Shown: piece by piece, positions 2,731 through 25,637 of the stretch
Layout: the number at the start of each line of letters is the position of its first letter
How positions within the stretch are numbered: the stretch's first letter is position 1
IMG/VR virus record: IMGVR_UViG_3300030090_002191
Location: 1 to 26,135 of that record
Source of the DNA: a virus
Reading direction: 5' to 3' (one strand)
DNA: 26,135 nucleotides
Program-made: the position numbers and the translations under genes
Notes under the pieces: generated by a model
What the model was told of the DNA's origin: nothing
The model's database searches: none
What the model saw: only the letters and a program-made list of their open reading frames with translations

Positions 2731-3830
2731 ATGGCTGATGGTAACGTAACAACCACCACGGCGGCTAAGTTCATCCCTGAGTTATGGCGTGACGCAATAT
2801 TAGACTACGCAGAGCGTAAGTTTGAATTGCGTAACCAGGTGATGGACTTTTCATCCGAATTACCCTCGGGAGACGTGCTTCACATACCCAAGGTAACTGA
2901 GGAGACTGCCGCCGCAAAATCCGCAGGAAGTGCGGTAACATACACAAACAACACTGATGGTGAGGTCACCATTACTGTTGATCAACATCATTACGAAGCA
3001 AAGCGTATTGAAGATATTGTCAGAGTTCAAGAGTCTGCAAACCTTTTTGGTGCTATTAATTTGGCGTTTGCATAAGTAATTATGCTTATTATGATTGCGG
3101 AAAAAAACTGGAAACCTAAGTCGCAAGATAAGGCAATCAGAGGTGAAGGCGTAAGCCAGCCGCAGAGACTAGGTAGTGAAATAATCTACCCACGAGACCG
3201 CGACACCCATATTGGGTGAAGAGATAGTCCGATACTCCATAGAAATGTGGAGAGCCTAGATAAAGAGCTAGGCGATAACAATTGTATGCACAATCTATGG
3301 GTTATGCCCTAGCCAAAAAGGTTGAAAACTACTTGGCGGTAGATGTTCTTCAATCTGCGACTGGAAATGATGTTAGTTTGTCTAGTGACAACACAATAAC
3401 ATCTGCGCTACTGCGTAGCGGTTTGCAGAAGCTCTTAGATGCTGGCCATGATTATGCTGATGGTGAAACATATTTATATGCTTCTCCGGCTGCGTACATG
3501 GGACTGTTAGGATTGCAGGATTTCTTTGATTCATCTCGTAGAGGTGATGAGCAGAACCCTAACGTCTCTGGTGCTGTAGGTATGATCTACGGTATGCCAA
3601 CATTTATCTCAACAGATTGGGATGATGATGGTGGGTCTGGTGATGAGACTGCATCTGTGTTTAAAAAAGAAGCTGTTTACATGGCAATGCAGATTGCACC
3701 TAGAGTGCAGTCAGCATACGACATTGACCACTTAGCTACATCAGTGGTAGCCGACATTTTGTTTGGCGCATCTTTGTCGCATGGTGCTTCTAGCACATCA
3801 CTTGGAGTTGTAAACTTCAATAATCCGTAA
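2731..3830 (+). CDS. Major capsid protein, interrupted by a group I intron; predicted join 2731..3054 and 3285..3830
   Basis: This gene encodes the coat protein that forms the head shell, probably with the HK97 fold. Read without splicing, exon 1 runs into a stop at 3073-3075, and the downstream frame has no ATG start, only a TTG at 3282. Removing 3055-3284 joins the frames in phase and gives 289 residues: 108 from exon 1 and 181 from exon 2. The joined peptide reads RVQESANLFGA then YAQSMGYALAKKV. This matches the spacing I expect in phage coat proteins, where a VQ..VNL segment is followed closely by Y...MGYALA. Exon 1 has the coat-like start FIPELWRDAILDYAERKF and an E-loop region with DVLHIPKV. 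Exon 2 contains YLYASPAAYMGLLGLQDFFD and a GMIYGMPTFIS strand. A terminator follows at 3846. The intron is described separately. Confidence 0.9.
3055..3284 (+). ncRNA. Group I self-splicing intron, probable subgroup IA, no internal endonuclease ORF
   Basis: The insert in the capsid gene folds as a compact group I ribozyme. P1: exon end GGTGCT (3049-3054) with guide GGCGTT (3063-3068), giving the required U-G pair U3054/G3063. P2: GCATAA (3070-3075) with TTATGC (3080-3085), closed by the GNRA loop GTAA. P3: TTGCGG (3095-3100) with CCGCGA (3198-3203). A GGC-GTAA-GCC hairpin (3148-3157) fits P6. P7: GACTA (3167-3171) with TAGTC (3225-3229), within AAGAGATAGTCC, close to the conserved group I S element. 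P7.1: GGTAG/CTACC (3172-3190), a subgroup IA feature. P8: CACCC/GGGTG (3204-3218). P9-type stems: CTCCA/TGGAG (3235-3252) and GCCTAG/CTAGGC (3254-3273). The last base, G3284, fits as terminal guanosine. P10 is not evident. P4 and P5 are only partly resolved by eye. Confidence 0.88.
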
Positions 3831-21352: not shown

Positions 21353-21724
21353 ATGCCTTCTCCTGCTTCAAGAAAAGGGTACAAAGGCGAAGTCGAGGTT
21401 GTGGAGTTACTCCGCGACCTCGGCTTTATTGCGGATCGATCTTGGGGCAGCGATGGACGTAGCTTTGGCGAAAAAAGCGATATTGATGTGAAAGCCACCA
21501 AAGGCGATTTAACGATACGAGTACAAGTTAAACGCAGAAAAAAACTTGCTAACTTCCTTTCATTTAAAAATGCAGATGTTGTCATGGTCAGGCAAGATCG
21601 AGCTCCTTGGTTATGGATTGTTACACATGATTGGATGAAAGGATTATTCAAAAGCGGAGCCGTAGAAACCCATAAAAACGAAAATGGCGTGTCTAACGAT
21701 CGTGATAGTCAAGGCTCCGCTTAA
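21353..21724 (+). CDS. Holliday junction resolvase-like nuclease (PD-(D/E)XK, Hjc type)
   Basis: This 123-residue protein starts SRKGYKGEVEVVELLRDLGF, with E13 in the GE-E helix. Asp43 and Asp45 (SDID) and a V-Q58-V-K60 motif follow (IRVQVKRRKK), giving the E...D...(Q)xK layout of archaeal Hjc-like and related phage resolvases, which cut four-way junctions during recombination and before packaging. The size fits. It lies right after the ssDNA-binding gene, the start codon being the base after that stop. A similar nuclease fold occurs again at 22723, so one of the two may be a resolvase and the other a different nuclease. Confidence 0.75.
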   Translation: MPSPASRKGYKGEVEVVELLRDLGFIADRSWGSDGRSFGEKSDIDVKATKGDLTIRVQVKRRKKLANFLSFKNADVVMVRQDRAPWLWIVTHDWMKGLFKSGAVETHKNENGVSNDRDSQGSA

Positions 21725-21729
21725 ATTTT

Positions 21730-21909
21730 ATGCCATATCCTATGAAGAAAAGACAACCAAACGCAAAAGCGCAGATGGTACAGGTAGTATCATCAAGTGT
21801 AATGAAAATATTAAAAAATCATATATATGATAAGGACACTAGACTAGATATAAGTTTAGATATATGCGATGACATTTTACGCAGAATAGAAAAGGGAGAG
21901 AGTAAATGA
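21730..21909 (+). CDS. Hypothetical 59-residue protein
   Basis: This frame starts at ATG 21730, five bases after the resolvase stop, and ends overlapping the adenine methyltransferase ATG by ATGA. It encodes 59 residues with a basic start ([15 protein letters not shown]), a helix ([16 protein letters not shown]) and an acidic-helical end ([20 protein letters not shown]). No motif is seen. The overlap and amphipathic helices support a real gene. Confidence 0.5.
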
Positions 21910-22370
21910 AACAAAAAAAACGGTATTGGGCAACGCCACCAGAAATGATGGAACAACTCAACTTGAGATTTAAATTTAATTACGATCCGTGCCCTCATCC
22001 AAGGCCAGAGGATTATGATGGCCTGCAAGCTAAATGGGGCACAAGAAACTATGTAAATCCACCATTTGTTGGTGGTGTTATGAAGTGGGTACATAAGGGT
22101 ATTGAAGAGTACGAGAATAACAAATTAGTAGTATTTATTTTACCAATGTTCGCAACGCGGGCCATCGCTCATTTATGTGAATATGGTGCTGAAATTGAAT
22201 ACGCAGGTGTACCGAAGTGGCTTGCCTTGGAAGACGGTGAACCTCATCCCGGAAGAAAAAGCAATCGACAGCCATGCGTGTTGTTAATATTAAGACCCAG
22301 TCAACCAGAATGCATTATGTGCGATGATAGCGTTTGTGAATATTGCCTGGAGAGTAGCAATGAAATATAA
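21906..22370 (+). CDS. Phage N6-adenine DNA methyltransferase (Dam type)
   Basis: This 154-residue protein starts [19 protein letters not shown], contains YDPCPHPRP (about 26-34) and NYVNPPF (about 48-54). NPPF is the (D/N)PP(Y/F) catalytic motif of adenine-N6 methyltransferases, and the W.TP...-DPCP-...NPP(F/Y) order is the phage Dam family. The S-adenosylmethionine site is the DPCP region by family analogy. The later part has [12 protein letters not shown] and a [14 protein letters not shown] segment. A Cys-rich C-terminus ([12 protein letters not shown]) is additional and could bind metal. It probably methylates phage DNA to avoid host restriction or to mark it for replication. A cytosine methyltransferase lies 2 kb downstream. 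Confidence 0.82.
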
Positions 22371-22722: not shown

Positions 22723-23109
22723 ATGCATACACTGCAAAAAGGCGCGATAGGCGAGCTCGCAGTGTGTAAGGATTTAATATCATCTGGCTACGATATATAC
22801 AAGCCAGTCGTTGATACGAATCATGTTGATCTGATTGTTGAGCAGGCAAATGGATTGATGAAGAGAGTGCAGATAAAAACTGTCATGAAAGCACAGCGCA
22901 GCACTACGATTTCTGTCAATACAAGCAAATACAAAAACTCTAAACGCGTTGATGTGGTTGCGATATATTTTTTACCAAAAGATATTATAGCCTATGTTCC
23001 TTATGAAAATACACACGATATTAGCCTGGCGTTGGCTACCGGGAAGAACAATCAAACAAAAGGCAGGAAGTGGTTCTATTCATATGAACGATTTCCAGAG
23101 TTTAGCTGA
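22723..23109 (+). CDS. PD-(D/E)XK family nuclease-like protein
   Basis: This 128-residue protein reads KGAIGELAVCKDLISSGYDI (E11 in GAIGE), then VDTNHVDLIVEQ (D36) and VQIKTV (Q50, K52), followed by a C-terminal strand-helix part and a basic-aromatic end (GKNNQTKGRKWFYSYERF). This is the E..D..(Q/E)xK core of PD-(D/E)XK nucleases, in the arrangement of the small KG..GE...L...GY.V..P..D...VDL(I)V family that includes PD-(D/E)XK homing endonucleases such as I-Ssp6803I. It is free-standing, not within an intron. Possible roles: nuclease in recombination, modification or restriction of competitor DNA, or a homing enzyme. Confidence 0.7.
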   Translation: MHTLQKGAIGELAVCKDLISSGYDIYKPVVDTNHVDLIVEQANGLMKRVQIKTVMKAQRSTTISVNTSKYKNSKRVDVVAIYFLPKDIIAYVPYENTHDISLALATGKNNQTKGRKWFYSYERFPEFS

Positions 23110-24340: not shown

Positions 24341-24463
24341 ATGCCAAATAAACAAGCAAAAGAGCGTAAGCGTAAGCGCAGGAGATTAAATGCGCTGCTT
24401 CAGAGCAATGGTCGTACGAAAAAACAGATACAGAGAATAAAAAGAAAACGTGAAACTACTTGA
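24341..24463 (+). CDS. 40-residue Arg/Lys-rich peptide
   Basis: This frame starts at ATG 24341, two bases after the zinc-ribbon stop, and ends 14 bases into the methyltransferase gene. It encodes 40 residues beginning MPNKQAKERKRKRRRLNALL and continuing with a GRTKKQIQRIKRKRE segment. A short MPNK..K.RKR..LN start followed by a GRT..Q helix is typical of small phage proteins I have seen. It is probably nucleic-acid binding or unstructured; no function is assigned. Confidence 0.5.
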   Translation: MPNKQAKERKRKRRRLNALLQSNGRTKKQIQRIKRKRETT

Positions 24464-25637
24464 TCTATTTAGTGGTATAGGTGGTTTTCATCAAGGCTTT
24501 ACGCAGGCTGGGTATACCTTTGATTGGGTAGGCTTCAGCGAAATAGATAAATATGCCAGCGCAGTGTATAAATATAATTATAAAGAAAGTGAGGAGCTAG
24601 GTGACATTACAACTATTCGACCCGGAAGAGATACCCCAGATAACATTGACATCCTTTGTGCAGGATTTCCGTGCCAAGCATTTAGCGTGGCTGGAAGACG
24701 AAAGGGATTTGATGACAGTAGAGGTACTCTCTTTTTTGAGATTGCACGGATTCTCAAATATTATAGAAAGCAACAAAGGCCAATCAAATGTCTGGTTCTC
24801 GAAAATGTTAAAGGCTTACTTAGTCACGACAGTGGACGCACATTTGCTGTCATCTACAGAATTCTTAGTGACCTTGGGTATACCATTGAGTTCCAATTAC
24901 TTAATACTCGCTGGTGGTTACCCCAAAATAGAGAACGAATATACATTGTCGGATATATTGGAAACCGAGGTGGACCACAAGTATTTCCTATCGGAGAAGA
25001 TGGTAAGCAACTTAATAAAAACAGACTTAAGGGAAGGCGGGTGGTCAACGGACTCGATTCTCACTATTACAAAGGAGCAGACGGCAAACGGACGATGATA
25101 CAAATCGGCACTATAGGAAAGGACAGCGAAGCCACGAAGAATGTAAAAAAGGTTGGTAATATTTATCAAAGCGGTGGAGAGAATGGTAATATTTATGACA
25201 TATCAGGTGTTGCACCAACATTGAAAAGTGGAACGACAAGTAATAAAAAACATGGCGGTATTGGTTCATCAAATTCTCCAAAAATATCTGTTTCAGAAGC
25301 CACAAAGAAAGGCTACGCAGAGGCTACGGTTGGTGATGCAATCAACTTAGAAAGACCGACAAGCAAAACAAGGCGTGGAAGAGTGACCAAAGGATATGCG
25401 CAGAGTTTAGAAACGGTGCAGCATCAGCACACCGTGGATGGTGGAATCCGCAGACTTACACCAGTTGAATGCAATCGCTTGCAAGGTTTTAGCGATGATC
25501 ATAATAAGTATGGTGTCATAGATGCTAAAGTTGTGGAGATGAGTGATACCCAAAGATATAAACAGGCAGGCAACGCAGTGACCGTGGATGTTGTGGAAGC
25601 TGTAGCAAGAATTATAAAACAAAAGGAGTTAATATGA
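24450..25637 (+). CDS. dcm: DNA (cytosine-5-)-methyltransferase
   Basis: This 395-residue enzyme methylates C5 of cytosine in a short DNA site. All the main motifs are visible: motif I DLFSGIGGFHQGF (SAM binding), motif II region VGFSEIDKYA, motif IV AGFPCQAFSVAG with catalytic Cys75, motif VI LENVKGL (118-123), motif VIII PQNRERIYIV (158-167), a variable target-recognition region (about 180-330), and motif X with QAGNAVTVDVVEA near the end. It starts at GTG 24450 inside the preceding peptide gene. Length is normal for the family. No restriction endonuclease lies next to it, so protection of phage DNA against host restriction is likely. A 165-codon frame overlaps it at +1. Confidence 0.93.
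   Translation: MKLLDLFSGIGGFHQGFTQAGYTFDWVGFSEIDKYASAVYKYNYKESEELGDITTIRPGRDTPDNIDILCAGFPCQAFSVAGRRKGFDDSRGTLFFEIARILKYYRKQQRPIKCLVLENVKGLLSHDSGRTFAVIYRILSDLGYTIEFQLLNTRWWLPQNRERIYIVGYIGNRGGPQVFPIGEDGKQLNKNRLKGRRVVNGLDSHYYKGADGKRTMIQIGTIGKDSEATKNVKKVGNIYQSGGENGNIYDISGVAPTLKSGTTSNKKHGGIGSSNSPKISVSEATKKGYAEATVGDAINLERPTSKTRRGRVTKGYAQSLETVQHQHTVDGGIRRLTPVECNRLQGFSDDHNKYGVIDAKVVEMSDTQRYKQAGNAVTVDVVEAVARIIKQKELI
24601..25098 (+). CDS. Candidate overprinted protein inside the cytosine methyltransferase gene
   Basis: This +1 frame relative to the methyltransferase runs 165 codons without a stop, from GTG 24601 to 25098. It is preceded by GAGGAG at 24591-24596 (4 bases from the start), a strong site that also lies in the methyltransferase frame. 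The product has a helical N-terminal part and, at residues 116-133, LSDILETEVDHKYFLSEK. This resembles, from memory, a segment found after motif VIII in other C5 methyltransferases (DILE..VD.KYYLSEK). It could be a translated regulatory protein, or an ancestral reading frame of the enzyme kept by chance. Low certainty that it is expressed. Confidence 0.35.
   Translation: MTLQLFDPEEIPQITLTSFVQDFRAKHLAWLEDERDLMTVEVLSFLRLHGFSNIIESNKGQSNVWFSKMLKAYLVTTVDAHLLSSTEFLVTLGIPLSSNYLILAGGYPKIENEYTLSDILETEVDHKYFLSEKMVSNLIKTDLREGGWSTDSILTITKEQTANGR

What the first reader, a model, noticed from the sequence alone, without database searches (positions are those of the whole stretch)
3055..3284. Compact group IA intron in the major capsid gene, with predicted exact splice sites
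The coat protein is split by a 230-nt insert that shows every core group I helix (P1 with the U-G pair at 3054/3063, P2, P3, P7, P7.1, P8, two P9-type stems) in the right order. Removing 3055-3284 joins the frames in phase and restores the expected coat spacing (ANLFGA then YAQSMGYALA). Only a few phage coat genes are known to me to carry introns; this one is very small and has no endonuclease, so it may be a domesticated or degenerating mobile intron. Without splicing no full coat protein is made.
Basis: partly seen in the sequence, partly recalled or inferred. Interest (0 to 1): 0.85.

Follow-up and report, generated by a model that had tools for sequence, protein, structure and literature searches.

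The report
Hopping ribozyme intron in capsid gene
A marine phage's capsid gene is interrupted by a tiny RNA element that should cut itself out of the message, and nearly identical copies sit at other positions of the same gene in related phages, so it has moved recently and may help show how introns without their own enzyme spread.

Summary
Window 3055-3284 is a 230-nt group I intron in the major capsid protein (MCP) gene. Rfam RF00028 matches it (46.8 bits, E 3.9e-9 over the window; just under the curated cut-off of 50). Uninterrupted relatives give exactly the predicted junction 3054|3285. Thirty related introns support the helices: 95% of cells paired against 32-38% when partners are slid; 41 of 61 pairs have changes on both sides, P3 and P7 included.

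"Domesticated or degenerating" is not supported. The same intron (98% identical) lies at codon 90 of the same gene in relatives, 54 nt upstream. It is 96% identical at codon 118, and 93% identical at codon 90 of a capsid gene whose protein is only 27% identical. In a scan not tied to any gene, 10 of 10 contigs with this intron type carry it in an MCP gene. The wider family occupies about 17 positions in homologous MCP genes, up to four introns per gene. The 5' exon ends GNU, matched by the intron's guide; a second guide (P10) tracks the 3' exon.

Spread between genomes looks recombinational; moves between sites fit reverse splicing, unproven. MCP introns, multi-intron MCP genes and compact phage introns are known; the within-gene relocation appears new. 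No RNA data.

The parts
2731..3054 (+). MCP exon 1 (108 codons), ends GGTGCT
   Evidence: phrog_267 major head protein E 4.2e-13; aligns to codons 1-108 of intronless relatives
3055..3284 (+). group I intron, 230 nt, no endonuclease gene
   Evidence: RF00028 46.8 bits; junction by relatives; covariation
3050..3067 (+). P1: 3050-3054 GUGCU with 3063-3067 GGCGU; U3054.G3063 wobble marks the 5' splice site; guide GGC at 3063-3065
   Evidence: sequence; GNU exon end matched to guide across the family
3070..3085 (+). P2: 3070-3075 with 3080-3085
   Evidence: 5 of 6 pairs with changes on both sides
3095..3203 (+). P3: 3095-3100 UUGCGG with 3198-3203 CCGCGA
   Evidence: 100% of cells paired; UA/GC and UA/UG/CG exchanges
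3108..3140 (+). P4 (3108-3111/3137-3140), P5 (3115-3117/3131-3133), P5a 3120-3129 with GNRA-type loop
   Evidence: GC/UA exchange in P4; CG/GC/UA in P5
3142..3161 (+). P6 (3142-3144/3159-3161) and P6a (3148-3150/3155-3157)
   Evidence: GC to CG exchange in P6; 25 of 30 rows break the outermost P6 pair
3167..3229 (+). P7: 3167-3171 GACUA with 3225-3229 UAGUC (catalytic pairing, crosses P3)
   Evidence: 100% paired; GACUA/UAGUC in 5 rows, GCAUA/UAUGC in 25
3172..3190 (+). P7.1: 3172-3176 with 3186-3190 (between P7-5' and P3-3', the IA hallmark)
   Evidence: 100% paired, 4 of 5 pairs with changes on both sides
3204..3218 (+). P8: 3204-3209 with 3213-3218
   Evidence: 5 of 6 pairs with changes on both sides
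3235..3273 (+). P9 (3235-3241/3246-3252) and P9.1 (3254-3259/3268-3273)
   Evidence: P9 99.5% paired, 6 of 7 pairs with changes on both sides; P9.1 87%
3285..3830 (+). MCP exon 2 (codons 109-289 and stop), starts TATGCA
   Evidence: phrog_267 E 8.6e-7; aligns to codons 109-289 of intronless relatives

Best explanation
3055-3284 is a splicing-competent group I (IA-type) ribozyme intron in the MCP gene of an uncultivated marine tailed phage. Inferred from the family: guanosine attacks after U3054, the freed exon attacks after G3284, and the joined frame encodes the 289-aa MCP. It belongs to a lineage of compact introns (most 211-258 nt), none of those seen in MCP genes carrying an endonuclease gene, that is concentrated in capsid genes and remains mobile. 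Between genomes the intron spreads at a given site by recombination that carries some flanking exon. Now and then it relocates to another GNU site of the same gene, most simply by reverse splicing into the abundant capsid mRNA followed by cDNA recombination. Shown by sequence: the intron, its junction, conserved structure, relocation, guide matching and co-converted flanks. Inferred: splicing activity and both mobility mechanisms.
For: RF00028 match. Exact junction against intronless alleles. Covariation: 95.3% paired against 31.7-38.4% slid, 318 cells changed on both sides against 91 in shuffles. The same intron is 98% identical at codon 90, 96% at codon 118, 93% at codon 90 of a divergent MCP (that MCP 27% aa identical over 153 aa); a supported clade (99/94) holds sites 90, 108 and 118. 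In two pattern scans not tied to a gene, 16 of 16 and 10 of 10 contigs carry the intron in an MCP gene. Guide matching: exon ends GCU, GGU, GAU, GUU face GGC, GCC, GUC, GAC; P10 70 of 87 positions paired against 45.8 in shuffles, 0 of 20,000 as high. Exon changes cluster around the insertion: 18 of 23 for L036 (p 8e-16), 11 of 17 for L084 (p 4e-6), 6 of 21 for the window (p 0.009).
Against: No RNA or splicing data. The RF00028 score is 3 bits below the curated cut-off. Reverse splicing needs reverse transcription, and no reverse transcriptase was found or systematically sought. Codon 90 is GCG or GCA in all 30 intronless alleles sampled and codon 108 is GCU in 2 of 30, so the presumed GCU targets are rare today. 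The window's own P10 is poor (1 of 3 positions). The contigs are metagenome assemblies. The window's flank clustering is weaker than the other two, and it has a second cluster of differences at 130-166.
Confidence: 0.93

Rival explanations
1. Relocation and spread are driven at DNA level by an endonuclease acting in trans (collaborative homing), with ectopic moves as by-products of cutting at related sites. The candidate in the window is the free-standing PD-(D/E)XK nuclease at 22723-23106.
For: Co-converted flanks at three sites are what break repair gives. The protein matches PF11645 (E 7.8e-16) and weakly the structure 2ost (E 0.0024). Free-standing enzymes with ORF-less introns are known in phages (PMC3984707).
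Against: The nuclease gene is also present in intronless relatives, identical in the contig of L001, so it does not follow the intron. The four GCU sites share almost nothing but GCU and a few 3' bases, too little for one homing enzyme's usual site. No endonuclease gene lies beside the MCP in the window.
Confidence: 0.3
2. Ordinary homologous recombination between co-infecting phages, plus rare chance insertions, accounts for everything; no special mobility operates.
For: MCP genes of this clade are mosaic: the window and L001 also differ in a block at 130-166 away from the intron.
Against: Homologous recombination cannot move an intron to another position of the gene; 98% identity at codons 90 and 108 and 93% identity across a 27%-identical protein need transfer of the intron itself.
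Confidence: 0.1
3. The insert is a dead or non-splicing remnant that breaks the capsid gene in defective genomes.
For: No RNA evidence; Rfam score just under the cut-off.
Against: All core helices are kept with covariation, exons keep frame and high identity to intronless alleles, and identical or near-identical intron alleles occur in several samples.
Confidence: 0.03

Closest known systems
Mycobacteriophage LittleE major capsid gene intron (PMC3706429)
   Same: Probable group I intron inside a phage major capsid gene, absent from close relatives; splicing proven there by RT-PCR and protein sequencing. A segment is shared with an intron in tail genes of other phages of the cluster.
   Different: About 819 nt with a predicted homing endonuclease; a single position in the capsid gene; no hopping within one gene described in the passages read.
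Intron-rich MCP genes of crAss-like phages (PMC7886860)
   Same: Several group I introns in one MCP gene (one MCP ORF in five fragments).
   Different: Identified there mainly by their endonuclease domains; large phages; no near-identical intron at different positions reported in the passages read.
Compact group I introns of Jug phages (PMC12363816)
   Same: Short group I introns (mean about 206 nt), many per genome, 37 of 76 with splicing supported by RNA reads.
   Different: Scattered over many genes (terL, nrdD, others) rather than concentrated in the capsid gene.
Multi-intron phage genes (Twort, cited in PMC11878797; Bastillevirinae, PMC11878797)
   Same: Up to three group I introns in one phage gene.
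   Different: Other genes (DNA polymerase, terminase, reductase), mean length about 802 nt in Bastillevirinae.
Fungal rDNA group I introns with presumed reverse-splicing spread (PMC1299323)
   Same: Related introns at different sites of one gene, explained by guide-directed reverse splicing.
   Different: Ribosomal DNA of fungi and older divergences; here a protein gene of phages with 96-98% identical introns.

Membership tests
Group I intron (Rfam RF00028) | Match to the covariance model | tested here: met
   46.8 bits, whole model 1-253, E 3.9e-9 over the window; 3.2 bits below the curated gathering score
Group I intron (Rfam RF00028) | Core helices P3, P4, P5, P6, P7, P8 in order, P7 crossing P3 | tested here: met
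   61 pairs counted over 30 introns, 95.3% paired, 41 with changes on both sides; outermost P6 pair not conserved
Group I intron (Rfam RF00028) | 5' exon ends in U paired to G of the guide (P1); intron ends in G | tested here: met
   U3054.G3063, G3284; GNU exon end matched to guide across the family; T and G were imposed, the guide match was not
Group I intron (Rfam RF00028) | Guanosine-initiated self-splicing | not testable with these tools
   needs RNA
Subgroup IA | Extra stem P7.1 between P7-5' and P3-3' | tested here: met
   3172-3176/3186-3190, 100% paired, 4 of 5 pairs covary; subgroup definition from own knowledge; IA1/2/3 not resolved
Homing (endonuclease-encoding) group I intron | Endonuclease gene inside the intron | tested here: not met
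   230 nt, no room; no ORF of 60 aa confined to it
Collaborative homing (free-standing endonuclease with ORF-less intron) | Endonuclease that cuts the intronless site | tested here: inconclusive
   PF11645 protein at 22723-23106 is present with and without the intron; cutting not testable
Reverse-splicing spread | Related introns at sites sharing only the guide-complementary bases | tested here: met
   GCU at codons 90, 108, 118, 259 with little else in common
Reverse-splicing spread | Reverse-spliced RNA or cDNA intermediate | not testable with these tools
   needs experiment

The most novel reading that the evidence does not exclude
A lineage of endonuclease-less ribozyme introns concentrated in phage capsid genes moves between positions of the same gene by RNA-guided reverse splicing, retuning its two guides to each new site: a natural, recent record of group I intron transposition in protein genes.
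Probability: 0.4. Interest if true: 0.8.

Novelty: new member of a known kind. Interest (0 to 1): 0.6.

Why it matters
[quoted passage not shown] Here an intron 96-98% identical sits at codons 90, 108 and 118 of one short phage gene, with matched guides and intronless alleles for comparison, which makes the question directly testable. It also shows that in these phages the most abundant structural gene can be missed or split in annotation because up to four introns cut it.

Tried and rejected
Rfam at the gathering threshold found nothing; the match appears only at relaxed thresholds. DNA search of isolated phages found only short core fragments, and tblastn of exon 2 found no isolated phage. 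The 84,980-species genome set has no relative of this MCP, so the bacterial host stays unknown. The PF11645 nuclease looked like the driver but does not follow the intron. A general rise of identity near the insertion was not seen at site 17.2, so co-conversion is claimed only for three pairwise comparisons. In some searches the automatic junctions failed for the first two introns of L167, L173 and L278 and for the first of L172; their sites were set by hand or left approximate, hence 'about 17' sites; the position labels are shifted for divergent MCPs and sites were assigned by exon context instead.

Full report
Observation. The window is a 26,135-base IMG/VR virus record. The MCP is encoded in two pieces, 2731-3054 and 3285-3830, both matching the same PHROG of major head proteins. 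Between them lies 3055-3284. Rfam's group I model matches 3053-3252 over its whole length with 46.8 bits (E 1.6e-10 in the local search, 3.9e-9 in the whole window), slightly under the curated score of 50, which is why the default search is empty. No other intron of the family is in the window.

Junction. Eighty MCP relatives were fetched from viral contigs. Most are uninterrupted; L001 has an intact 289-aa frame and is 846/867 nt identical to the window after removal of 3055-3284, without a gap. Ten of the 78 loci that reach the N-terminal half are interrupted.

Structure. Thirty introns from MCP genes were aligned and the group I structure read from the window intron was counted on them: 95.3% of cells form standard pairs (31.7-38.4% when partners are slid by 1-3 columns), and 41 of 61 pairs show changes on both sides. 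P7 reads GACUA/UAGUC in the window type and GCAUA/UAUGC in the others. P7.1 is present in all. The structure was derived from one of these sequences, so the percentage alone leans towards it; the double changes do not share that bias to the same degree.

Relocation. The window intron is 98.6-97.7% identical to introns at codon 90 (L032, L006, L084), 95.9% to one at codon 118 (L123) and 92.7% to one at codon 90 of L201, whose MCP is 27% identical in amino acids over 153 residues of exon 2. A tree places these in one clade (99/94) spanning sites 90, 108 and 118, and a wider one (100/96) adds sites 50 and 17. A specific core pattern gave 16 of 16 contigs in MCP genes, and the P7 GACUA pattern gave 10 of 10. 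Both patterns came from MCP introns, so they describe this subfamily, not all its relatives.

Family. A profile of the introns finds more: four introns in the MCP genes of L167 and L278, three in L151 and L172, two in L049, L062, L123, L182 and L201, at about 17 positions in homologous MCPs. L140 (three introns) lies in a gene that matches a different major head protein family (phrog_1328, E 4.1e-14), and L160 (two) appears to be the same gene type. Looser relatives occur in tape-measure and terminase genes of other phages; they lie mostly outside the window's clade.

Guides. Five-prime exons end GCU, GGU, GAU or GUU and the guide reads GGC, GCC, GUC or GAC. In one search the guide match was a filter, it was not, and the sites agree. 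The three intron bases before the guide pair with the first three bases of the 3' exon at 70 of 87 positions (shuffled mean 45.8; none of 20,000 shuffles as high), although two rows have a misplaced guide, which lowers the count. For example AAA faces UUU at codons 90 and 118 and AAG faces CUU in L201. In the window only one of three positions pairs, which suggests, but does not prove, that codon 108 is the newer site.

Flanks. Compared with its nearest intronless allele, L036 has 18 of 23 exon differences within 40 nt of the insertion (p 8e-16), L084 11 of 17 (p 4e-6) and the window 6 of 21 (p 0.009). This is the footprint of recombination carrying the intron with some exon. Codon 90 is never GCU in 30 intronless alleles, codon 108 in 2 of 30, codon 118 in 22 of 30, codon 259 in 3 of 30.

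Mechanism. Splicing is inferred from a fully conserved and covarying group I core and from the need for an intact MCP. For spread at a site, recombination is supported; what starts it is unknown. For moves between sites, the four GCU sites share little beyond GCU, which suits an RNA guide better than one DNA endonuclease, but selection for splicing-competent insertions would leave the same trace. The free-standing PF11645 nuclease at 22723-23106 is present with and without the intron.

Known context. Capsid introns are known in mycobacteriophage LittleE and cited for Tuc2009 (PMC3706429), and in crAss-like phages, including an MCP gene in five pieces (PMC7886860). Compact group I introns abound in Jug phages, half of the tested ones with RNA support (PMC12363816). 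A review calls reverse-splicing spread unproven experimentally, with rDNA introns as the best circumstantial case (PMC3984707; PMC1299323). The intron is therefore a new member of a known kind; its recent relocation within one protein gene is what I did not find described, within the open-access papers that could be searched.

Noticed in passing
window 22723-23106: Free-standing PD-(D/E)XK nuclease (PF11645, E 7.8e-16), weakly similar to structure 2ost; a conserved gene of this phage clade, with or without the intron.
   Followed up: partly
window 21353-21721: Small protein with a sub-threshold match to archaeal Holliday junction resolvase Hjc (E 0.001).
   Followed up: no
window 24450-25634 and 21906-22367: C5 cytosine DNA methylase (E 1e-73) and a Dam-type adenine methylase (E 9e-7) in one small phage genome.
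   Followed up: no
window 2860-2900 (MCP nt 130-166): A second block of 10 differences between the window and L001, away from the intron, suggests mosaic MCP genes.
   Followed up: no
L140, L160: Three and two introns of the same family in a different MCP type; L140 matches phrog_1328 major head protein.
   Followed up: partly
L099-L200 (many): A related intron clade sits at a few positions of tape-measure-like genes in prophages of isolate genomes.
   Followed up: no
L173 and L278, first intron: About 29 extra bases (TAAGTC...GACTTA, an inverted repeat) follow the usual intron end; the 3' splice site could not be placed.
   Followed up: no
L135, L166: HNH-like endonuclease sequence in the frame upstream of related introns.
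   Followed up: no
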